Of a DNA stretch of 36,893 bases, positions 11,582 through 28,271 are shown piece by piece. The notes under the pieces were generated by a model. The model was not told the origin of the DNA, ran no database searches, and saw nothing but the letters and a program-made list of their open reading frames with translations. Source of the stretch: Prevotellaceae bacterium (GTDB lineage Bacteria; Bacteroidota; Bacteroidia; Bacteroidales; Bacteroidaceae); NCBI GenBank assembly GCA_022508665.1, contig JAFLUT010000012.1, positions 1-36,893 of the forward strand. Reading direction: 5' to 3'. How positions within the stretch are numbered: the first letter of the stretch is position 1; the number at the start of each line of letters is the position of its first letter. Made by a program: the position numbers and the translations under genes.

Positions 11582-14050
11582 TTACTCCTGCACATACACA
11601 CGCTGCACCCGTGTACTAATGCCAGTCAGCACTTCGTATGGGATTGTGCCGAGAGCGTCGCTCAGCACCGTGACAGGCAGGTTATCGCCAAAAATTTCCA
11701 CTTGGTCACCCTCCTTGCATTCTATGTCCGTCACGTCAATCATGCACACGTCCATGCAGATGTTGCCCACATAGTCCGCCCTCTTGCCATTGACGAGGCA
11801 GTAGCACCCACGGTTCCCAAGACGTCGGTTAAATCCGTCCGCATAGCCTATGGGGATAGCGGCAATGCGGCTATTCCTGTCAAGCGTCGTGCGCCGCGAG
11901 TATCCCACAGTGTCGCCAGCCGGCACATCATGAATTTGCAGAATAGTCGTCTTCAGCGTCGCCACGTTATTTATAATATGGTTATTGCGTGCATTTATGC
12001 CATACAGCCCAAGCCCAAGACGCACCATGTCGAGATGATATTCAGGGAAATGCTCAATGCCTGCCGAGTTGCATATATGGCGTAAAATCTTATGAGGATA
12101 AGCCTGTTGCAACTGTTGGCTGGCACGGTCAAACAGGGCGAACTGCTGCCGTGAGAAAGCGTCAAACTCATCGCCGTCACTGCCCACAAAATGGCTGAAC
12201 ACCGAACACGGCACAAGAGCAGTCTGACGTTGCAGTCGGTCAATGAGGCGCGGCATGTCAGCCTTAGGGTCAAAGCCAAGACGATGCATGCCAGTATCGA
12301 GTTTTATATGTATAGGAAAATTTGTGATGCCCTCCTTCTCAGCGGCATGTATGAGTTGTTCGAGCAAGTTAAAGCTAAACACCTCAGGCTCAAGCCGATA
12401 GTCAAACAGCATCTTGAACGAGGTCGTTTCGGGGTTCATCACCATGATGCTTGCAGTGATGCCAGCCTTGCGGAGGTCAGCCCCCTCATCAGCCACAGCC
12501 ACAGCCAGATAGTCCACCCCATTGTCTTGCAGCGTCTTGCTCGTTTCGAGCGAGCCTACGCCATATCCGCTCGCCTTCACCATGCACACAATCTTTGTTT
12601 CGGGCTTCATCATGCTGCGATAGTGCCTCACGTTGTTGACAAGCGCATTAAGGTTTACTTCAAGTATCGTCTGATGCACCTTCAATGTGAGCAAGTCACT
12701 CAGTTTGTCAAAGCGAAACTGCCTTGCCCCCTTGATGAGGATAAACTCATCGCGCAGATTGTGAAAAACCTCACTGTGTATCAGCGCCTCAGATGTCAAG
12801 AACGTATGATGCTCCATAGGGAAATACTCAGCACACGCACATATCTCCTTGCCCACCCCAATAACCTTCTCAATGCCTCTCGACGCAGCCATTTGCGCCA
12901 CACGAGAGTAGAGGCTGCGTGGCGATTCGCCGCTCTGCAAAATGTCAGATAAAATAAGCGTGCGCCTCTGCTTGCGTGTCTCAGGTCTGCGGCTCATAAA
13001 GTCGAGGGCAATGTCCAGCGAGTGAACGTCAGAGTTATAAGAGTCATTGATGAGCGTACAGCCATTTTCCCCGTCCTTCACCTCAAGCCTCATCGCCACC
13101 TGCTCCAGTCGTCCCATACCCTCACACAGTTTGGCAACTATATCTTTCTTCGCCATGCCTTCCATGGCGGCAAGCGCCGTCGTGAAACACGTGATAGAGT
13201 TCTGTATAGACGCATCATCAATAAAATTTATAGTGTATTGCCCCACCTCTCCGCCATGTTCAAACCGTATGGTGGCACGCTCCCCCTCTTTCTCAATGCC
13301 TCGTATTTTCAAACTCCGCCTTTCTACGCTTTCAGGCAGTGCAGCCGCACACCTCTGTATAGTGGCATCAGCAGAGCCTATCACCACCGTCTGACATCCT
13401 CGGAACAGTTTCATCTTCTCCGAGCATTTAATGTCATAACTCATGAAATTCTCCTGATGCGCAGCGCCAAGGTTAGTCATCACCCCTATGGTTGGCCTCA
13501 CAATCCTCTCCAGCCGTTCCATTTCCCGAGGCTGAGATATGCCAGCCTCTATAATAGCGATGTCGCTATGGCTGCCTATGAGCCACACGCTGAGCGGCAC
13601 ACCCACCTGACTGTTGTAGCTCCTTGGCGAGCGGCACACGTTGCAATAGGGAGAAAGCAGTTGATAAAGCCACTCCTTCACCGTCGTCTTGCCGTTAGAC
13701 CCCGTGATAGCAATCACAGGAATGTCCAGTCTGCTGCGGTGATAAGCGGCAAGCGCTTGCAGCGCCTCCACAGAAGACTTGACAAAAAGGAAATTAGCAT
13801 CCCCCTTGCCGTCCGCAAGACCGTCCGCAGCATTGCCCTGCTCCACAACAAAATTCCTTACCCCACGCCTGTACAGCCCATCAACATACTTATGTCCGTC
13901 ATTCTTCTCCGTGCGAATAGCGAAGAACAGCGTTTCCTCGGGGAAACACAGGCTTCGGCTGTCAATAAGCAGCCAATTTATCTTAGCGTCGGCACAGCCA
14001 ATCCGCTCTGCTCCGACAATGTTCGCAATATCTGCTATGCTATATGTCAT
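11582..14050 (-). CDS. Bifunctional MurF-type ligase / alanine racemase
   Basis: Fuses two peptidoglycan enzymes. The N-terminal half is a Mur ligase (UDP-MurNAc-tripeptide:D-Ala-D-Ala ligase, MurF type) with ATP loop GSNGKTT at residues 117-123. The C-terminal half is a fold-III alanine racemase with PLP lysine Lys492 in MVKASGYG and second catalytic base Tyr717 in VGYSR, making the D-alanine that MurF substrates need. This fusion is common in Bacteroidetes. The frame is open to an ATG at 14083, but the ATG at 14050 gives MTYSIADIANIVG, a natural MurF start, and creates a 4-base ATGA overlap with the upstream GSCFA gene, so I chose it (822 residues). Confidence 0.93.
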   Translation of the reverse strand: MTYSIADIANIVGAERIGCADAKINWLLIDSRSLCFPEETLFFAIRTEKNDGHKYVDGLYRRGVRNFVVEQGNAADGLADGKGDANFLFVKSSVEALQALAAYHRSRLDIPVIAITGSNGKTTVKEWLYQLLSPYCNVCRSPRSYNSQVGVPLSVWLIGSHSDIAIIEAGISQPREMERLERIVRPTIGVMTNLGAAHQENFMSYDIKCSEKMKLFRGCQTVVIGSADATIQRCAAALPESVERRSLKIRGIEKEGERATIRFEHGGEVGQYTINFIDDASIQNSITCFTTALAAMEGMAKKDIVAKLCEGMGRLEQVAMRLEVKDGENGCTLINDSYNSDVHSLDIALDFMSRRPETRKQRRTLILSDILQSGESPRSLYSRVAQMAASRGIEKVIGVGKEICACAEYFPMEHHTFLTSEALIHSEVFHNLRDEFILIKGARQFRFDKLSDLLTLKVHQTILEVNLNALVNNVRHYRSMMKPETKIVCMVKASGYGVGSLETSKTLQDNGVDYLAVAVADEGADLRKAGITASIMVMNPETTSFKMLFDYRLEPEVFSFNLLEQLIHAAEKEGITNFPIHIKLDTGMHRLGFDPKADMPRLIDRLQRQTALVPCSVFSHFVGSDGDEFDAFSRQQFALFDRASQQLQQAYPHKILRHICNSAGIEHFPEYHLDMVRLGLGLYGINARNNHIINNVATLKTTILQIHDVPAGDTVGYSRRTTLDRNSRIAAIPIGYADGFNRRLGNRGCYCLVNGKRADYVGNICMDVCMIDVTDIECKEGDQVEIFGDNLPVTVLSDALGTIPYEVLTGISTRVQRVYVQE

Positions 14051-14925
14051 TTCACTATCGTGCGATGCTGCCGCCTTCGCCACTCCTTAGTCGCCTTCGC
14101 CGCAGCATCCTTTGTCTTATTGTCAAAATACGTATCTTGGAAACGCTGCCAGATATACTCCACCGCCACCTCCGACGGATGTACCATGTCGGCAGCGTAA
14201 AAGCGGTAGTCACGCAGTTCATCCAGCATAATCTCGTAGGCAGGGAAATAGGAGCAAACATCCGCCGCACCCCTCACCAGCGCATCTACCGCCTGAAGCA
14301 GTATACCCTTCGACACTTGGTTAGCATGAAATCCGTCACGCCTGTGCCTTATAGGGCTTATCGTAAAGACTATCCTCAGTTTAGGGTTCACGCTCTCCAA
14401 CAGCCTCAACAGCATCTGCCACTGGTCAGCAATGTCGTATGCCGTCATGCACTCCCTCACGAAAAGCCCGTCAGCCTGCTTATGGCAGTTAGCCACCAGC
14501 ATGCCCGTCTCTTTCAGCCTATATGCGATAGCAGTGCCAAGCGTCACCACAAGCACGTCAGCCTCACGCAGAAACGCCGCCACCTCATGCATCGTCCGGT
14601 TCATCTTCGTCAGCAGCGCCTCCTTATCCGTCGACGAGAAACGGCTGTGATGCATCCACGAGTGCCATGCGCCGTCAGCCTCCCCTCTCACCAGTTCCGC
14701 AGCATCGCCGCCATACTCCCTCTCGCTGATGCTCCTCAGCAGGCTTGCCGCAATGCTCGCAGGGTTATACAATGTGCCGAAAGGATTGACCATAGCCCTA
14801 AGCCCACCCGTTATCATCTTCTGCCCCACCTCGTCGGCAAAGCACGACCCCACAAGAAGCACACGTGCCTCAGCCCCAATCTTCCATTCCGACTTGGGAA
14901 TGTCTATGCGTGTCATCAGTTCCAT
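14047..14925 (-). CDS. GSCFA-domain protein
   Basis: A 292-residue protein of the GSCFA family, named for the motif seen here as VLLVGSCFADEVGQKM near residue 25. The fold is thought to resemble SGNH/GDSL hydrolases. A GSCFADE block, the later VVTLGTAI strand and a C-terminal Asp/His pair (in ADMVHPSEVA) fit such a hydrolase, but the substrate is not known. No signal peptide is seen. It is first in the transcript with murF-alr and overlaps that gene by 4 bases, which hints at a cell-envelope role. Its own promoter is just upstream. Confidence 0.85.
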   Translation of the reverse strand: MELMTRIDIPKSEWKIGAEARVLLVGSCFADEVGQKMITGGLRAMVNPFGTLYNPASIAASLLRSISEREYGGDAAELVRGEADGAWHSWMHHSRFSSTDKEALLTKMNRTMHEVAAFLREADVLVVTLGTAIAYRLKETGMLVANCHKQADGLFVRECMTAYDIADQWQMLLRLLESVNPKLRIVFTISPIRHRRDGFHANQVSKGILLQAVDALVRGAADVCSYFPAYEIMLDELRDYRFYAADMVHPSEVAVEYIWQRFQDTYFDNKTKDAAAKATKEWRRRQHRTIVK

Positions 14926-15082: not shown

Positions 15083-15517
15083 ATGACAACAGACGAAAAA
15101 TATATGTCAATAGCCCTTGAAGAGGCAAAGACAGCCATGTCGCAAGACGAGATACCCATTGGTGCAGTAGTAGTGGCAGACGGACAGATAATAGGCAAAG
15201 GACACAACCTGACAGAGACACTACACGACGTGACCGCCCACGCCGAAATGCAAGCAATTACAGCGGCAGCAGAATGGCTCGGAGGCAAATATCTGGACAG
15301 ATGCACCCTCTATGTGACAGTCGAACCATGCGTGATGTGCGCCGGAGCAATAGGGTGGAGCCAGTTGGGCAGACTTGTGTATGGGGCAAGCGACGAAAAG
15401 CGAGGCTTTCAGAGGTTCGCCCCAAAAGCACTGCACCCCAAAACCGCAGTCGTGAGCGGAGTGTTGGAAGAAGAATGCTCAACGCTGATGAAAAACTTCT
15501 TCAAAGGGAAACGGTAG
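15083..15517 (+). CDS. tadA: tRNA-specific adenosine deaminase
   Basis: Deaminates the wobble adenosine of tRNA-Arg(ACG) to inosine. The zinc site is complete: HAE at residues 53-55 and PCVMC with Cys83 and Cys86; Glu55 is the proton shuttle. Length from the chosen start is 144 residues, close to other TadA proteins. The frame extends upstream to an ATG at 15017, but that codon lies inside the predicted promoter, while the ATG at 15083 gives MTTDEKYMSIALEEA, the usual TadA beginning. It is divergent from the GSCFA gene and convergent with the nucleoside kinase gene. Confidence 0.93.
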   Translation: MTTDEKYMSIALEEAKTAMSQDEIPIGAVVVADGQIIGKGHNLTETLHDVTAHAEMQAITAAAEWLGGKYLDRCTLYVTVEPCVMCAGAIGWSQLGRLVYGASDEKRGFQRFAPKALHPKTAVVSGVLEEECSTLMKNFFKGKR

Positions 15518-15576
15518 TCACACAACGCTCGTCGACACCCCACACAGACTTACATATTAGCCATAATCCCCCCGCT

Positions 15577-16704
15577 TTAATACTCAAAGACACTGCCGCC
15601 AATAAACTCACGCAGCAGCGAGTCAGCAGGAATGAGGTCAGCAGGAATAGTGTGAAAACGTTGAAGCACCCATTTCAGACGTTGCGCCTCAGTATATTCG
15701 GGCGACTCCTTAGGCACTTTCTCCAGCAGCGGCAGAGCCTGCGTCTTCAGCACAGCCAGTTCATACTGGAAAGCAGTGCAGAAATTGATGTCAGCATTCT
15801 GCTGAAACGGCACAATCCACTTGTCCTCGCCGCGCCTCACCGATGGCCAGCGAGCAAGCGTAGCCTGTGCCGACGTGCCTCGGAACTGAGCGTCACGCAC
15901 CATGCGGCGGATGAGGCGGTTATCAGTCGTAGGGCGATAAGTGCCGTCATGCTGCTTAGCCACGGTCAGCCCCGAAATGTAGATGCGGAAAAGAGCTTCG
16001 TCAGGGATAGAGCCAGTCAAAATATGGTTCAGCGCATGAATACCCTCCATGATAAGGATTGTGTCAGAGTGCAGACGCAGGAACTTGCCGCTCTTCACCC
16101 TCTTGCCCGACACAAAGTCATAGCGAGGCAACTCTATCTCCTCCCCTGCAAGGAGTTGAGCAAAATGACGCTGAAAAAGGTCAATGTCCACAGCATACAG
16201 ACTTTCGTAGTCATACTCGCCATTTTCGTCCAGCGGTGTGCGCTCACGGTCAACGTAGTAGTCGTCAAAAGAAATGCAGTGCGCCGTCATCCCGTTCTTC
16301 TCCAGCGCGCGGCTCAACTTCTTGCTGAACGTAGTCTTGCCGCTCGACGAAGGTCCGGCAATGAGTATCGCCTTCACGTTAGGACGAGAGGCAGCAGCCT
16401 CGCCAATCTTCTCAATGCCACGCACCTGCAGCGCATCCCATATCTTCACCATTTTCTCAGTGTCGCCCTCGTCAACAATGCGGTTCATAGTGCCGATAGA
16501 GTAAGACACAGTCCTCAGACGCTTGCTGAAAAAATCATCGTCATCAATCTTGCCAACAAGGTGTTCAATCACCTCGTCAAGTTCCTCGCCGCAAGTCTCC
16601 GACTTTATCTGCTTGAAGATATTGAGGAAATTCATGTTTGCCTCAAACAGTTCTGAACTTCTGTTGTCCACGCGTCCAGTTGGTTCTGACGTATTCATCT
16701 GCAT
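15577..16704 (-). CDS. Nucleoside (uridine-type) kinase, short form
   Basis: A 375-residue P-loop kinase of the uridine kinase/phosphoribulokinase group, probably phosphorylating a nucleoside for pyrimidine salvage. Walker A GPSSSGKT is at 117-124, followed by SFDDYYVDRERTPLDENGEYD, the nucleoside-binding region of this family, and ARWPSVRRGEDKW. From family knowledge, Bacteroidales versions are usually about 550 residues with an N-terminal TGS/tRNA-synthetase-like region of roughly 200 residues. That region is absent here, and only ~110 residues precede the kinase. No upstream frame supplies it, and the promoter sits directly before this start, so the short form looks genuine. It could start at Met3 instead. 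Confidence 0.88.
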   Translation of the reverse strand: MQMNTSEPTGRVDNRSSELFEANMNFLNIFKQIKSETCGEELDEVIEHLVGKIDDDDFFSKRLRTVSYSIGTMNRIVDEGDTEKMVKIWDALQVRGIEKIGEAAASRPNVKAILIAGPSSSGKTTFSKKLSRALEKNGMTAHCISFDDYYVDRERTPLDENGEYDYESLYAVDIDLFQRHFAQLLAGEEIELPRYDFVSGKRVKSGKFLRLHSDTILIMEGIHALNHILTGSIPDEALFRIYISGLTVAKQHDGTYRPTTDNRLIRRMVRDAQFRGTSAQATLARWPSVRRGEDKWIVPFQQNADINFCTAFQYELAVLKTQALPLLEKVPKESPEYTEAQRLKWVLQRFHTIPADLIPADSLLREFIGGSVFEY

Positions 16705-18779: not shown

Positions 18780-21700
18780 TTACTTCACGAGAACCTTAGT
18801 AACCTTGCCGTTAGAGTATTTAACAATGTTGATACCTTTCTGCAGAGAAGAAACCTTAGTTCCTGCGAGAGTGTAGATAGCCACTGGAGCAGATGCTGCG
18901 TCGTCAGCAGGTTCTACTGTATTGATGTCAGTTGCAATCTTCTCGCTCTTTGTGCCGAAGTATGTCAAATGGAAGTCGTCAGCCTTGAACCAGCCATTTG
19001 CAGTAACCTTGATTTCGAGTTCAGCGCCTTCTTTAAGCACGAAGATGTTGGTTACTTTGTGGCCAATGTTCTTTGGACCTACAACCAATACGTTTTCTTC
19101 CTCTTCTTCATCCTCGTCTACCTCTGCTGGCTCGTCGTCTTCTGTTGCCTCATCGTCGCTTTCAAGAGCAGGAACAGTGATAGTAGCCTTAGACTTTCTG
19201 TGAGTGTTAGTTTCGAGGCTGATTTCATTACCTGCATCACCTGCTACAAGGGCAGAAACTTCGTATGTACCTGCTGGGAGACCTGCGATAGTCTGTGCCA
19301 ACCAGAAGCCACCGCTTGGTACGCTGCCGTTCCATGTGTTGAATACATAATAGCCGTCAGCGTTCTCTACGTAGTAAGTGCCGTAGCCTGTGATTCTCAC
19401 CTCGCCTGTCTCTACACCGCTTTCGTCCTTTACTTTCTCTGTAGCGTAGATTGGAGTGCGCTCGCCTTCTACATCCTCAAACACTCGTGCAACCTTTGTG
19501 TCGCCAGAAGCGGCTGTGTTGTATGTCCAGCCAGTGATTGTCTTCACCTCATCGCCGTCATCCTCGAAACTTGGGTTAACGATAGCCCCAGTCATGTCGA
19601 ATGGTTCTGCGTCAGAAGCATTTTCGTAACCTGTTGGAATTCTCAAGAAACCTGCAACATACTTAATCTTCTCTATCAATGCTCTGAGCTCGTCTGTTGT
19701 CAAGTTGTCTGGGTCGCCTATTTCATCTTGCAAATCGTTGTATGCAGCCTCTTGCTCATCGCTCAAACCTTCCTCTGAGTATTCAGCATAAACTTCCTCG
19801 AGGTTTTCTTGAGCAGCAAGGAATTCTGCATATACAGCAATGTTTGCCTTTGCATCAGCAAATGCCTTGTTGAAAGCCTTCAGAGCATCCCACATCACTT
19901 CAACATCGCCAGTCTTTTCAGAAGCGATAGCCGCAGCCATCTTTGATGTGAGTGCATTGAATGCAGCAGTAGTCATAGTTTCACCAACTGTATAGCCGCC
20001 GAGGTCTTCTTCCTCACCGTTCAGAGCCATGAATGCTTGAGCCGCAGGTGTGAGTGCGTCAATAGTTTTTGTAACGCTCTCCTGTGTCTTACCTTCGTAA
20101 GTGAGAGTGAAGTTAGACCAAAGTACCCAGTGAGCATTTACACCATTAGATGTGAGACCAACTTTCATTGTGCCACCTTCAACGAGACCGTATGTCTTCT
20201 GCTCATAGCGACCATAGCGGAATGCATAAGATGCACCTGACATACCGTTTGGAACGTAGTTTGTTTCACCTGCAATATCCAACGTAGAGTCGTGGTTGGT
20301 TGTTCCATTGGTATTGGTATAATCTTCGGCTACATCACCTTCGATAAAGCAGTTTACATAATTTTCGGCTTTACTTTGTGGCATAGCATCGTCTGCAATG
20401 CTTTGAACATTAGTCTGGAAGTCATTCATGAAAAGATAAGTTTTTGTTTCTTTAGGCCATGATTCAAAATTTGCAATTTCTCCCGGACGCTCGAAAGCAT
20501 TACAAGCGATAGAATATATACCGTCTGGAACATTGCTAACAGTCTGAGAAACATCTACAGTACCACCGTAACGTTCAACACATGGGAAATCTTTCAAACC
20601 GCCTGCTGTACCTGCACTGTAAGTCCAACCCGTGAAACCATTATCAAACTTAGGATTGACGAGCAAGTCTGATACGTCTATGCCAGGTGCCATGCTATTT
20701 CTGAGGGTCTCAGTGATGAGTTTCTCAACCCACTCTTTTTCTGCTGCAAGTTCATCATTTGTAAGTGTCCTTGTATCAAGGATGTAGATAGCAGAACCGT
20801 TAGGGAATGCGTTTGCTCCGTTTGGTTCTTCGTTGTCACTGATATATGCTTGGAGACGCATAACATATTCGCCATCCAGTTGGAGAACCTTGTTGTTGCT
20901 CACTTCATTCTCGATATAGTTGCGGAATGCAGCGTATGCATTAACAGACTCTTGAGCGGCTTCGATTGCCCTCTTCAATGTCTGAGTTGCAGCAACGATT
21001 TGGTCTCTTGTTGCATTGTTTGGGTCAAAGTTTGTTGCATCTTTGAGCGCTTGCAGCACTGCAACATTCATTTCGCCATCATACATTTCCTCTGCCTCTG
21101 CTTTTGCTTTGGTGAACTCGTTGATGTAATCCTGCAGTTCATACTTGTAGAGTTTCACTGGACCGAGAATACACCAAGAGTTGTAAGTGTTAATGTAGCC
21201 TTTGAAGCCAATGTCTAACGTTGTTTCTTTGTCGAGGTCAAAGTCGAACTCGTTGCTCCATTTTCCATTATAGAATGCGTTAGCGGCTTTGTTTATATCT
21301 GCGCTACCAGTCCAACCATTAAGCACGTTTGAAGGTGCATCATAAACACCCTGCTCCTTGATGTCTCCTGCAAAGATAAAAGCCTTGGTGCTAAGATGTA
21401 CTTGGCCGTCGTCTGTACGACCGTTACCCTCACGATAGAAAGCGTTAACAGCGAGACGGTAGTTACCTGCTGGCAATGTGACTTTCTGTGTGAAGTGGAA
21501 GTTCTGAGTAAATCCCAATTCTGTTTTGCCATCTTTTACGGCACCTGCAACCCATGTGTGAAAGAACTCTATGACAGGTACCTCTGTATTATTGCCAGTT
21601 GTTTTGGCTTGGTAGTACAAACTGTCACCTGCGGCATTTTTTACTCCGTCGTTTTTCGTTCCTGCCAATGGGTCTCCCATGTCCCAACCTTCCAACGACG

Positions 21701-21809
21701 ACAGGTCAGCATTTTGCAAATACTGGTCTGTGATGTCTGTTTGTGCATGGGCGTTGAATCCCAAAGCACTGGCGGCTAATGCCACCACAAAAAGTAGTCT
21801 TCTTTTCAT
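18780..21809 (-). CDS. Large secreted modular protein with galactose-binding-like domains
   Basis: A 1009-residue exported protein of unknown function. Residues 1-22 are a signal peptide. Three related beta-rich modules are visible, each with an 'N-x-FDNGFTGW / GW-Y' opening and a closing 'F-LTY' strand: about 30-228, 385-575 and 745-955. They resemble carbohydrate-binding galactose-binding-like folds. Helical FIVAR-like segments separate them (about 230-300 and 590-740). Module 3 is interrupted near residues 884-904 by an almost purely Asp/Glu run. The last ~35 residues (AIYTLAGTKVSSLQKGIN then KVTKVLVK) resemble Prevotella C-terminal sorting tails used by type IX secretion. No catalytic motif was recognised; surface glycan binding or adhesion is an inference. 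It may share a transcript with the small peptide genes upstream. Confidence 0.8.
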   Translation of the reverse strand: MKRRLLFVVALAASALGFNAHAQTDITDQYLQNADLSSLEGWDMGDPLAGTKNDGVKNAAGDSLYYQAKTTGNNTEVPVIEFFHTWVAGAVKDGKTELGFTQNFHFTQKVTLPAGNYRLAVNAFYREGNGRTDDGQVHLSTKAFIFAGDIKEQGVYDAPSNVLNGWTGSADINKAANAFYNGKWSNEFDFDLDKETTLDIGFKGYINTYNSWCILGPVKLYKYELQDYINEFTKAKAEAEEMYDGEMNVAVLQALKDATNFDPNNATRDQIVAATQTLKRAIEAAQESVNAYAAFRNYIENEVSNNKVLQLDGEYVMRLQAYISDNEEPNGANAFPNGSAIYILDTRTLTNDELAAEKEWVEKLITETLRNSMAPGIDVSDLLVNPKFDNGFTGWTYSAGTAGGLKDFPCVERYGGTVDVSQTVSNVPDGIYSIACNAFERPGEIANFESWPKETKTYLFMNDFQTNVQSIADDAMPQSKAENYVNCFIEGDVAEDYTNTNGTTNHDSTLDIAGETNYVPNGMSGASYAFRYGRYEQKTYGLVEGGTMKVGLTSNGVNAHWVLWSNFTLTYEGKTQESVTKTIDALTPAAQAFMALNGEEEDLGGYTVGETMTTAAFNALTSKMAAAIASEKTGDVEVMWDALKAFNKAFADAKANIAVYAEFLAAQENLEEVYAEYSEEGLSDEQEAAYNDLQDEIGDPDNLTTDELRALIEKIKYVAGFLRIPTGYENASDAEPFDMTGAIVNPSFEDDGDEVKTITGWTYNTAASGDTKVARVFEDVEGERTPIYATEKVKDESGVETGEVRITGYGTYYVENADGYYVFNTWNGSVPSGGFWLAQTIAGLPAGTYEVSALVAGDAGNEISLETNTHRKSKATITVPALESDDEATEDDEPAEVDEDEEEEENVLVVGPKNIGHKVTNIFVLKEGAELEIKVTANGWFKADDFHLTYFGTKSEKIATDINTVEPADDAASAPVAIYTLAGTKVSSLQKGINIVKYSNGKVTKVLVK

Positions 21810-21850
21810 TGTTAATAATAATTTTGGTTAATTAAAAAATTGTTTGTTAA

Positions 21851-21858
21851 TAAGTTTG
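21851..21858 (+). promoter_or_regulatory. Possible antisense promoter box
   Basis: TAAGTTTG matches TAnnTTTG on the strand opposite the peptide genes. The nearest upstream TTTTG (21822-21826) is 24 bases away, longer than the usual 19-21, so support is weak. If real, its RNA would run antisense across both peptides. Confidence 0.25.
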
Positions 21859-21972
21859 TTTCTTAGGTTTTATTGTCTATTTGTTTTTTGTGTTCTATTT
21901 CTTCTCCCCCTCCCTTGGTTACATCCCACATAAACTTTGCTAACTCACTCAACGTTCTGGAAGAAAAAAAGT

Positions 21973-22077
21973 TCAAGCTCGTTTCTTCTTACGGTTAATA
22001 CTGTCTATTACAACAAGAATGATGCTAATGATTAAAATCATCAATATCGGTAATGACCCCCAAAATACTCTCATCAT
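21973..22077 (-). CDS. Small hydrophobic peptide 2 (34 residues)
   Basis: Predicted single-helix membrane peptide. After MMRVFWG comes about 19 hydrophobic residues, then IDSINRKKKRA, a basic tail that should stay in the cytoplasm. The tail and the position of the helix match peptide 1 just upstream, so the two are probably duplicates. Its first ATG overlaps the stop codon of peptide 1 as ATGA, the classic layout for translational coupling; the second in-frame ATG follows directly. No known family was recognised. The shape recalls type I toxin or regulatory membrane peptides, but nothing in the sequence proves this. It lies 163 bases before the 1009-residue protein gene. Confidence 0.6.
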   Translation of the reverse strand: MMRVFWGSLPILMILIISIILVVIDSINRKKKRA

Positions 22078-22181
22078 ACTGTCTTTTTCTTTTTATTGTT
22101 TATACTGTCTATTATAATCTCAACAATAACAATTGCAACAATTATTGATATTACGACTAATCCATAATTTATATTATTCAT
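22074..22181 (-). CDS. Small hydrophobic peptide 1 (35 residues)
   Basis: Predicted single-helix membrane peptide: a short polar start (MNNINYG), about 18 aliphatic residues, one glutamate, then IIIDSINNKKKKTV. The IDSIN-N/R-KKK ending is shared with peptide 2, evidence that both frames are under selection as proteins. AAGGAAG lies 4 bases before the ATG and could act as a ribosome binding site, unusual in this phylum. Its ATG overlaps the TGA of a decayed upstream frame, and its own TGA overlaps the ATG of peptide 2, so the three copies form a chain of 4-base overlaps. Function is unknown. Confidence 0.6.
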   Translation of the reverse strand: MNNINYGLVVISIIVAIVIVEIIIDSINNKKKKTV

Positions 22182-22262
22182 ACACTTCCTTTCTTTTTGC
22201 GGTTAATGTAATCTATTACCGAATCTTATAAATATCGGTAGTAATCCCCACAATTCGTTTAT
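22178..22262 (-). pseudogene. Decayed third copy of the small membrane peptide
   Basis: One frame begins with WGLLPIF, like FWGSLPIL of peptide 2; a second frame ends VIDYINRKKKGSV, like the tails of peptides 1 and 2, and its TGA overlaps the ATG of peptide 1. The two halves are in different frames, a TAA separates them, no ATG starts the first, and much of the membrane helix is missing. A small deletion plus frameshift is the simplest reading. Confidence 0.5.
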
Positions 22263-22303
22263 ATTGTAGTGTTAGTTTCGCAGTTAGTATAGGTTAATTT
22301 TTG

Positions 22304-22336
22304 CAAATATAGACAAAAAGGGATGTATTCGCAAAA
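22304..22336 (-). promoter_or_regulatory. Promoter of the small-peptide operon
   Basis: On the minus strand TTTTGC (22336-22331) and TATATTTG (22311-22304) are separated by 19 bases, a near-ideal Bacteroidetes promoter. Transcription would begin near 22297 and pass the decayed copy, both peptides, and perhaps the 1009-residue protein gene, for which no nearer promoter was found. Confidence 0.7.
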
Positions 22337-22419
22337 TAAAAAGTGTTAAAAATGATGTAAAAGCAGGAAAAAGGTGCGTTTTGTATATTGGAGTGATGTA
22401 ATCGGGGGGAGATGTATAG

Positions 22420-23604
22420 TCAGAAGAGTTTTCTAATGTCCATGGAGAGGAAATCTTCTGCGGTGATGCCTCCATTGCCTACAATCAGGGCTGTATGGGG
22501 CGTGAATGCGGCTTTGAATGTCTCTAATCCTTTTGTGCTTTTCTCGGCGCTGCTCTTTACTTCTATCGCTACGAGCGAGCCTTTTTTGCGCAGCACGAAA
22601 TCGACTTCGTCGTTGCGTTCTCGCCAATAGAACACCTCGAAGCGATGCACAAATGCTTGGCTGATGATGTAGGCTCCAATGCCCGACTCAAATATGTGTC
22701 CCCATGCTTTGCGGTCGAGTGTGGCTTGCTCAAAGGTGTGGGGGCTGTAGATAGTTTTCAGTGCGTTGTTATAGACTTGAAATTTGGGAATGCTCTGTTT
22801 TCTTCGGGCTGTGTCGACACTATATTTCTGCAATCCGTCGAGCATGCCTGATTCGTTAAGCAGGTTGATGTATCCTGCCAGTGTTGTGGTGTTGCCTGCG
22901 TCTTGTAGTGAGCCTAACATCTTGTTGAGTGAGAGCAGTTGTCCTGAGTATGCTGCGCCTAACTCGAATGTTTGCCTCAGCAGTGCAGGTTTGCCGACAG
23001 GGGTGTCCATTAGGATGTCTTTGTTTATGGTTGTTTCGACAATGGCTGATTGAACATATTGCTGGTAGCGGTCGTCGTCGGCGATGAGCGCTGCTGCGCC
23101 CGGATAGCCTCCGTAGAACAGGTACTGGTTGAGCGTGTATCCGAAGCAGTCGTGCATTTCGGTGTAACTCCAATGTGTCATGCGGATTTCTTCAAATCGT
23201 CCTCCGAGGGATTCGGACAGCCCTTTTTCTAACAGTACTCGGCTGCTGCCAAGCAGGAGGACTTTTATGTGGCGGTCGTGGAAGGTGTCATCATCCCACT
23301 CTTTCTTTACGGCTTCGCTCCAGTTGGCTATTTTCTGGATTTCGTCAATCACGAGGATGATGCTTTCCAATTCTTTGTTGTCTTGCAGTCTGCGCACGCT
23401 TTCCCAGCAGTTGGCAATCCATGCGCCGTCGCTGGCTGGCACGTTGTCTGCGGAGAAGAACTGGTAGGGTGCGTCAATCTCTTGCAGCACCTGCTTCACG
23501 ACGGTGGATTTTCCTACCTGTCGAGGTCCCATTACAACTTGAATGAACTTTCTCGGCTCTTTCAGCCTGTCTCTAATAACTTGATATTCAGCCCTTTTAT
23601 ACAT
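22420..23604 (-). CDS. AAA-type ATPase with DUF4143 C-terminus
   Basis: A 394-residue protein of the large, uncharacterised bacterial ATPase group that pairs an N-terminal P-loop domain with DUF4143. Walker A GPRQVGKS is at 26-33; Walker B ILVIDEIQK ends at Asp87-Glu88. The middle has the YPGAAAL segment typical of the group, followed by helical DUF4143 sequence. The C-terminus carries NDEVDFVLRKKG then AIEVKSS, an E/D...D...ExK pattern like a PD-(D/E)XK nuclease remnant. Such genes are usually solitary and variable between strains; their role is unknown, with defence or toxin-antitoxin links suggested but unproven. It has its own promoter with a palindromic operator-like site. Confidence 0.85.
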   Translation of the reverse strand: MYKRAEYQVIRDRLKEPRKFIQVVMGPRQVGKSTVVKQVLQEIDAPYQFFSADNVPASDGAWIANCWESVRRLQDNKELESIILVIDEIQKIANWSEAVKKEWDDDTFHDRHIKVLLLGSSRVLLEKGLSESLGGRFEEIRMTHWSYTEMHDCFGYTLNQYLFYGGYPGAAALIADDDRYQQYVQSAIVETTINKDILMDTPVGKPALLRQTFELGAAYSGQLLSLNKMLGSLQDAGNTTTLAGYINLLNESGMLDGLQKYSVDTARRKQSIPKFQVYNNALKTIYSPHTFEQATLDRKAWGHIFESGIGAYIISQAFVHRFEVFYWRERNDEVDFVLRKKGSLVAIEVKSSAEKSTKGLETFKAAFTPHTALIVGNGGITAEDFLSMDIRKLF

Positions 23605-26798: not shown

Positions 26799-26867
26799 GG
26801 TTTCTCTCCGTCGTTAGTACCGTTCCCTCTCCGCTGTTGATGTCGTTCCCCCTCTGCCGTTGGTGCC
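26799..26867. repeat. 23-base tandem array (3 units)
   Basis: Three exact-length units start at 26799, 26822 and 26845. Units 2 and 3 match at about 18 of 23 positions; unit 1 matches them at about 14-15. The last contains GCCGTTG, as in the arrays at 18541 and 36801. It ends 20 bases before the -33 box of the GH105 gene. Confidence 0.75.
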
Positions 26868-26887
26868 GAAAGAAAAAAGTGTTTTCC

Positions 26888-26919
26888 TTTGGAGTTGTGC
26901 GGTCTTATTCGTATCTTTG
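26888..26919 (+). promoter_or_regulatory. Promoter of the GH105-type gene
   Basis: TTTG (26888-26891) and TATCTTTG (26912-26919) are 20 bases apart, a textbook Bacteroidetes promoter 23 bases before the chosen start codon. Confidence 0.75.
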
Positions 26920-26942
26920 TGGCGGTAATAAATTCTGATGCA

Positions 26943-28232
26943 ATGAAAACAAAGACATCTTTTCTGTTTGTTCTTTCTGTGCTGGCGTGTATGAGCGTTG
27001 AGGCTCAGCCAAGGCAGGAGGAGGTTATGGCGGCAATGGAGTGTGCCAACGATTATTTTATGAGGAAGTATCCTGACCCCGGGAAGCCGACGTTTGTGAA
27101 GAAGGAGCGCCCGTCGAACCTGTGGACGAGGGGCGTGTATTTCGAGGGTCTTGTGGCGCTGACGGAGGTTGAGCGGCAGACGGGGGGCGGAAGGTATGGC
27201 ACATATTATAAATATATATATGACTGGGGAACGGCGCACGGGTGGACGCCTCGCAATGGGGTGACGACGAGGGATGCGGATGACTATTGCTGCTGTCAGA
27301 CGTACTTGGATATGTATTGGATGGATAATCCGATGACGCATGTCTTTAAGGATGAGGCGTTTGTGGCGCCTACTATTCAGTGTGTGGACAATGTGATTGG
27401 GGCGAAGGATGTGCCGTGGGTGGCTGGCGGACAGGTGAAGTCGGAGGGCAGCGACGGCGACTGGACGTGGATTGACGCTATTCAAATGGGGTTGCCTGTG
27501 TTCTCGAAGGTGGCGCGCATGCGTTGCTTCTTTGGGGCGGAGGATGCGACGGTGTATACGGAGAAGGGATGGGCGATGTATGAGGCGACGCGCAACAGGA
27601 TTGGCGGTGGGCTGTTCAATGCTGAGGACGGGCTGTGGTGGCGTGACGCTGATTTTGTGCCTCCTTACGCTGAGCCTAACGGGGAGGATTGCTACTGGAG
27701 CAGGGGGAATGGCTGGGTGTATGCTGCGCTGGTGCGTGCTATGGATGCGATGCTGGTGGCGAGGAGGGCTGAGGAAGGCACTTATGCTGAACCGCTGGGC
27801 GAGAGGAAATGGAAAAATCTTGGGGCGGATGCTCATTATAAGGATTATTTGAAGGATTATTTGGCGATGACGGATGCGCTGGTGAGGTGCCAGAGGGGTG
27901 ACCGCTTTTGGAATGTGTCGCTGCATGACGAGGGCAACTATGGCGGTGTGGAGTTGTCGGGTACGGCGCTGTTCATCTATGGCATGGCGTGGGGCGTGAG
28001 GCACGGCTATCTGCCGAAGAAGAGGTTTCTGCCTGTCATCTATCAGACGTGGGATGCGATGGTGAAGACGTGTCTGCATGAGGACGGTTTTTTGGGATAT
28101 GTGCAGGGAACTGGCAAGGAGCCGAAGGACTCGCAGCCTGTGACGTATGACAGGGAGCCTGACTTTGACGACTACGGGCTTGGGTGTTTCTTGCTGTGCG
28201 GCACGGAGATTGTGAGGCTGCTTAATCAATAA
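26943..28232 (+). CDS. Glycoside hydrolase family 105/88-type unsaturated glycuronyl hydrolase
   Basis: A 429-residue exported (alpha/alpha)6-barrel enzyme that most likely removes unsaturated uronic acid from oligosaccharides made by pectin or other polysaccharide lyases. The signal peptide is MKTKTSFLFVLSVLACMSVEA. The family's catalytic aspartate is probably Asp178 in WTWIDAIQMGLP; YWSRGNGWVY at 251-260 and GGVELSGTALFIYGMAWG near the end are further landmarks. Pectic substrates are an inference: no SusC/D, lyase or other carbohydrate gene is adjacent. The frame is open 54 bases upstream, but that ATG is inside the promoter, so the start at 26943 was chosen. The DUF4837 lipoprotein gene follows. 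Confidence 0.88.
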   Translation: MKTKTSFLFVLSVLACMSVEAQPRQEEVMAAMECANDYFMRKYPDPGKPTFVKKERPSNLWTRGVYFEGLVALTEVERQTGGGRYGTYYKYIYDWGTAHGWTPRNGVTTRDADDYCCCQTYLDMYWMDNPMTHVFKDEAFVAPTIQCVDNVIGAKDVPWVAGGQVKSEGSDGDWTWIDAIQMGLPVFSKVARMRCFFGAEDATVYTEKGWAMYEATRNRIGGGLFNAEDGLWWRDADFVPPYAEPNGEDCYWSRGNGWVYAALVRAMDAMLVARRAEEGTYAEPLGERKWKNLGADAHYKDYLKDYLAMTDALVRCQRGDRFWNVSLHDEGNYGGVELSGTALFIYGMAWGVRHGYLPKKRFLPVIYQTWDAMVKTCLHEDGFLGYVQGTGKEPKDSQPVTYDREPDFDDYGLGCFLLCGTEIVRLLNQ

Positions 28233-28271
28233 TGGATGAGTTGGCATGGGGGAAAAAACTGGATGATGAGT

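What the first reader, a model, noticed from the sequence alone, without database searches (positions are those of the whole stretch)
21973..22336. Operon of tandem, overlapping 34-35 residue membrane peptides upstream of a giant secreted protein
Seen directly: behind a near-perfect Bacteroidetes promoter lie two short frames with the same design (short start, 18-19 residue hydrophobic helix, IDSIN-N/R-KKK tail), joined by an ATGA overlap, plus a frameshifted third copy joined by a second ATGA overlap. Shared protein sequence, duplication and coupled starts argue for real genes that size cut-offs miss. Inference: they could be toxin-like, signalling or stress peptides, or a leader controlling the large downstream gene.
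Basis: partly seen in the sequence, partly recalled or inferred. Interest (0 to 1): 0.8.

Follow-up and report, generated by a model that had tools for sequence, protein, structure and literature searches.

The report
Orphan tandem membrane micropeptides in leader
A Bacteroidales-type genome carries a tiny tandem array of genes for 34-35 residue membrane peptides wedged between a promoter and a surface-protein gene; the copies look like real protein-coding genes, but no relative was found in any other sampled genome and their job is unknown, so this is a credible unannotated small-protein family, not a breakthrough.

Summary
PepA (22181-22074, 35 aa) and PepB (22077-21973, 34 aa) lie head to tail with an ATGA overlap. 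A dead third copy (about 22265-22178) has lost its ATG and 20 nt. All three are 104-nt units. The promoter is a full TTTG-N20-TATATTTG match. The arrangement is not chance: 0 of 4,000 shuffles and 0 pairs in 1.97 Mb of other DNA give an ATGA-coupled pair of small membrane ORFs. The copies diverged with protein-level constraint (dN/dS 0.12 dead copy vs B, 0.49 A vs B). The homology prediction failed: no relative in the other 44 same-genus species, about 400 family genomes, about 390 order genomes, phages or plasmids. The KKK tail itself is a convergent end of many membrane proteins. New: the promoter is homologous to that of a paralogous surface-protein gene in the same genome, and that paralog's short leader matches the DNA just before the window's surface gene, so the array looks inserted (about 445 nt) between promoter and gene. 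Most likely they are coupled, single-pass inner-membrane peptides (N-out, C-in), toxin-like or modulators of a membrane partner; activity is untested. A leader-attenuator role is not supported.

The parts
22304..22335 (-). Bacteroidetes sigma-ABfr-type promoter TTTG-N20-TATATTTG; start site expected near 22297
   Evidence: Full match to both boxes, only two-box match in the 800-nt region; block 22353-22300 homologous to the promoter of the paralogous gene on contig C82; consensus from PMC7366714
22178..22265 (-). Degenerate outermost copy: no ATG, 20-nt deletion, remnants WGLLPIFI and VIDYINRKKKGSV, ends in ATGA overlapping PepA
   Evidence: Direct repeats D1/D2; codon comparison with PepB, dN/dS 0.12 on surviving pieces
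22074..22181 (-). PepA, 35-aa predicted single-pass membrane peptide
   Evidence: ORF; KD18 3.2; no Pfam/NCBIfam/PADLOC match above threshold
21973..22077 (-). PepB, 34-aa predicted single-pass membrane peptide, start overlaps PepA stop (ATGA)
   Evidence: ORF; KD18 3.0; AlphaFold2 single helix 8-33, mean pLDDT 85; no family match above threshold
21855..22299 (-). Inferred inserted segment (about 445 nt; array part 29% GC) between promoter and the native leader of the surface-protein gene; CAAA at both edges
   Evidence: The C82 paralog has promoter and leader directly joined; its leader aligns to window 21858-21805 from CAAACTT on. Direction (insertion here vs loss at C82) is inference
18780..21809 (-). 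Downstream 1,009-aa predicted surface/secreted protein, member of a multi-copy paralogous family; N-terminal domain resembles carbohydrate-binding modules
   Evidence: 44 of 45 same-genus genomes (own included) have a match, up to 13 matches per genome; weak DUF5013; Foldseek best hits TmCBM61, CBM16 at modest TM-score
22420..23604 (-). Upstream gene, not part of the array: AAA ATPase with DUF4143, ends before the promoter
   Evidence: Pfam; PADLOC candidate PDC-S01 E 1e-184

Best explanation
This is a small, real gene array: two live 34-35 residue single-pass inner-membrane peptides and one dead copy, grown by tandem duplication of a 104-nt coding unit, sitting between a strong promoter and a paralogous surface-protein gene and transcribed with it. 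Because 104 nt shifts the frame by -1, each copy ends in an ATGA that starts the next, so ribosomes finishing one would tend to start the next and make the peptides in a fixed ratio. The helix would insert N-out with the KKK tail in the cytoplasm, where the peptides act on the membrane or on a membrane partner (toxin-like or modulatory). Shown: array, repeat structure, coding constraint, promoter, absence of relatives in the sampled genomes. Inferred: insertion event, co-transcription, coupled translation, topology, membrane action.
For: Exact 104-nt repeats; ATGA junction between both live copies and at the dead one; synonymous-biased change between copies, dN/dS 0.12 (dead copy vs B) and 0.49 (A vs B), and only 0.01-0.06% of neutral simulations keep an open frame, a membrane helix and a basic tail; no coupled membrane ORF pair in 1.97 Mb or in 4,000 shuffles; full promoter and no second two-box promoter before the surface gene; promoter and leader similarity to the C82 paralog, where they are contiguous; one confident helix.
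Against: No homologue in any other searched genome, so conservation between species cannot be tested. Codon usage is poor for this genome (0.57 and 0.46 against 0.65-0.80 for neighbours). Constraint rests on three short copies; A vs B differences by codon position (14, 12, 17) are only mildly biased. No expression data.
Confidence: 0.6

Rival explanations
1. A decaying or selfish fragment: an AT-rich coding scrap acquired recently, duplicated in place, with no present function; the dead copy shows the end state.
For: 29% GC against 45-50% in neighbours and poor codon usage; no relatives; one of three copies already dead.
Against: Two copies keep start, frame, helix and basic tail despite about 42% nucleotide divergence, which neutral drift keeps in under 0.1% of simulations; dN/dS below 1.
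Confidence: 0.17
2. A type I toxin system like Ldr/Fst: each peptide is a membrane toxin silenced by an antisense RNA.
For: Length, single helix and positively charged C-in tail are those described for LdrA in PMC8309996; Ldr genes also occur as repeats; B. thetaiotaomicron has putative type I systems (PMC7366714).
Against: No two-box promoter on the opposite strand; no Pfam match to any toxin family at E up to 10; coupled tandem starts within one unit are unlike Ldr, whose long repeats each encode an mRNA and an antisense RNA.
Confidence: 0.12
3. Leader peptides: translation of the short frames controls expression of the surface-protein gene.
For: Long (about 490 nt) leader directly upstream with no other two-box promoter; B. 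thetaiotaomicron BT_4401 has a 462-nt 5' UTR with several short ORFs (PMC7366714).
Against: About 35 relatives of the downstream gene lack such peptides and mostly have short leaders; no terminator-like site, no Rfam element, no strong local structure; constraint is on the whole peptide and its membrane helix, not on a run of regulatory codons.
Confidence: 0.08
4. A leaderless two-peptide bacteriocin-like pair acting on other cells.
For: Similar short cationic paralogues in tandem resemble enterocin L50 and aureocin A70 in layout (own knowledge; papers listed were not read in full).
Against: The helices are uniformly hydrophobic; no transporter or immunity gene next to them; no bacteriocin family match above threshold (YxzE E 0.22).
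Confidence: 0.03

Closest known systems
Short ORFs in long 5' UTRs of Bacteroides thetaiotaomicron (e.g. BT_4401, 462 nt, sORF_378-381; PMC7366714)
   Same: Several short ORFs inside a several-hundred-nt leader in the same order of bacteria, with the same promoter consensus
   Different: Here the ORFs are duplicates of one another, overlap by ATGA, and show protein-level constraint; sequence relation to the BT_4401 ORFs was not tested
Ldr/Fst-type type I toxins (PMC8309996)
   Same: About 35 residues, one membrane helix, positive C-terminal tail predicted in the cytoplasm (LdrA); repeated copies
   Different: No antisense promoter found, no Pfam match, no APxxxGxxx motif, copies share one promoter and overlap by ATGA
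Leaderless multi-peptide bacteriocins (aureocin A70, enterocin L50)
   Same: Tandem similar cationic short peptides without leader (own knowledge)
   Different: Uniformly hydrophobic helix, no immunity or export genes beside them, Gram-negative host
G033 peptide MNTYQTIGFALLMALSASIIVYAIIDSIKSKKKR (locus L041, same genus)
   Same: 34 aa, one helix, DSIxxKKK tail
   Different: Single copy, other context, match not significant on its own (E 0.58 in one genome); best read as convergence

Membership tests
Type I toxin (Ldr/Fst-like) | Short peptide, one membrane helix, charged C-terminal tail | tested here: met
   KD18 3.0-3.2, helix 8-33 in PepB, KKK tails; topology itself is inferred
Type I toxin (Ldr/Fst-like) | Match to a curated toxin family model | tested here: not met
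   Pfam at E up to 10 and PADLOC: no toxin family
Type I toxin (Ldr/Fst-like) | APxxxGxxx motif of the Fst group | tested here: not met
   Absent from both peptides; motif from PMC8309996
Type I toxin (Ldr/Fst-like) | Antisense RNA from the opposite strand | tested here: inconclusive
   No + strand promoter with both boxes in 21700-22500; only isolated -7-like boxes
Type I toxin (Ldr/Fst-like) | Toxic when overproduced | not testable with these tools
   Needs a bench assay
Leader-peptide attenuator | Terminator or alternative RNA structure between short ORF and regulated gene | tested here: not met
   0 terminator-like sites, no Rfam match, weak local folding
Leader-peptide attenuator | Short ORF kept upstream of related genes | tested here: not met
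   No similar peptide among about 35 related genes
Leaderless bacteriocin | Family match and neighbouring export/immunity genes | tested here: not met
   Neighbours are a DUF4143 ATPase and a surface protein; Pfam YxzE only E 0.22

The most novel reading that the evidence does not exclude
A new kind of compact operon-embedded micropeptide array: one promoter drives a chain of related membrane peptides linked by ATGA overlaps, which grows and shrinks by 104-nt unit duplication and uses a captured surface-protein promoter, so that peptide dose and surface-protein expression are tied together.
Probability: 0.12. Interest if true: 0.6.

Novelty: new variant of a known kind. Interest (0 to 1): 0.38.

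Why it matters
It is a clear case where gene callers' size limits and cross-species conservation filters would both discard genes that within-locus duplication shows to be coding. [quoted passage not shown] It also gives a natural example of coding DNA lying between a promoter and its gene, which can be tested for effects on the surface protein.

Tried and rejected
Homology: blastn of the array in 101 relatives, then the family sample, gave only 20-60 nt AT-rich matches that do not encode the peptide. tblastn and a three-row profile in genus, family and order gave TM tails of VWA-domain proteins or non-coding stretches. That look-alike was one of the three rows of the profile, which only broadens it. 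The single strict-pattern hit in G034 is not a membrane peptide. Genome contigs with the surface protein gave nothing. Leader similarity to C82 alone is partly compositional: another relative scores as high against C82, but the window's own best match is C82, and the promoter match (74 against 39 or less for all others) is specific.

Full report
Observation. A promoter with both boxes of the Bacteroidetes consensus (TTTG, 20 nt, TATATTTG) ends at 22304; it is the only two-box match on either strand in 21700-22500 (consensus in PMC7366714). PepA and PepB follow, overlapping by ATGA. Repeat analysis shows a tail block three times at spacing 104 and 104 and an N-terminal block at 188, that is two units minus 20 nt. 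The outer copy has therefore lost 20 nt, and where PepB has its second ATG it reads ATA, so it is a dead copy. Because 104 leaves remainder 2 on division by 3, each unit naturally produces the -1 overlap, which also survives at the dead copy's junction.

Is it coding? Comparison of the copies: dead copy vs PepB on the surviving codons dN 0.125, dS 1.04; PepA vs PepB dN 0.53, dS 1.10 (the stretches are short and dS is near saturation, so the values are approximate). In neutral simulations with the observed divergence 12% keep the frame open and 0.06% or 0.01%, by starting copy, also keep a helix and a basic tail. Shuffles and a 1.97-Mb background give no coupled pair. PepB is predicted as one helix, residues 8-33, at mean pLDDT 85 from its single sequence. 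Against it: 29% GC and atypical codons.

Relatives. None found: the other same-genus species, 399 family genomes by pattern, profile and DNA, 393 order genomes, phages and plasmids. The closest species searched share only about 77% protein identity in the neighbouring PriA, so sampling near this species is thin and absence says little beyond 'not widespread'. The IDxIxxKKK tail after a helix is common in unrelated proteins, so tail similarity between genomes is not evidence of homology. Within this locus homology rests on the DNA repeats.

Setting. The downstream 1,009-aa protein belongs to a family present in 44 of 45 same-genus genomes (own included), often in many copies. Its N-terminal domain models mostly as beta strands, and the best PDB matches are carbohydrate-binding modules and other jelly-roll-like folds at modest TM-score; no curated sorting or secretion domain was found. 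Relatives whose start could be placed have AT-rich, mostly short leaders and no comparable peptides. The paralog on contig C82 has the same promoter block (85% over 53 nt; score 74 against 39 or less for all others) joined directly to a leader that matches the window just upstream of 21809. The simplest reading is that about 445 nt carrying the array came to lie between promoter and leader, with CAAA at both edges; loss at C82 is the alternative.

Mechanism. Shown: gene structure, constraint, promoter, lack of a second two-box promoter. Inferred: one transcript, coupled translation, N-out/C-in topology, action in or on the inner membrane. Which action (toxin-like, modulator) cannot be decided here. 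A leader-control role is disfavoured, type I toxin-antitoxin lacks an antisense promoter and a family match, and a bacteriocin role lacks the usual neighbours.

Verdict. A genuine, unannotated-looking, so far orphan micropeptide array; moderately interesting, mainly as a demonstration that tandem copies can argue for coding where cross-species comparison cannot.

Noticed in passing
window 22420-23604: AAA/DUF4143 ATPase strongly matches PADLOC candidate defence model PDC-S01 (E 1e-184) and is patchily present, 8 of 45 same-genus genomes.
   Followed up: partly
window 18780-21809 and G000:C82:17937-20114: Surface-protein family with many paralogs per genome across the genus; function unknown, N-terminal domain resembles carbohydrate-binding modules.
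   Followed up: partly
window 11582-14083: One 833-aa ORF carries Mur ligase domains followed by an alanine racemase (Pfam).
   Followed up: no
L041 1498-1602 (-), G033: Single 34-aa membrane peptide with IDSIKSKKKR tail beside small genes of a likely mobile element; probably convergent.
   Followed up: partly
loci L171, L174, L193, L246, L327: IDxIxxKKK directly after a terminal membrane helix recurs in unrelated membrane proteins of several phyla, apparently a convergent membrane-end motif.
   Followed up: partly
window 26814-28247 and 15274-16656: Two ORFs of 477 and 460 aa without any Pfam match.
   Followed up: no
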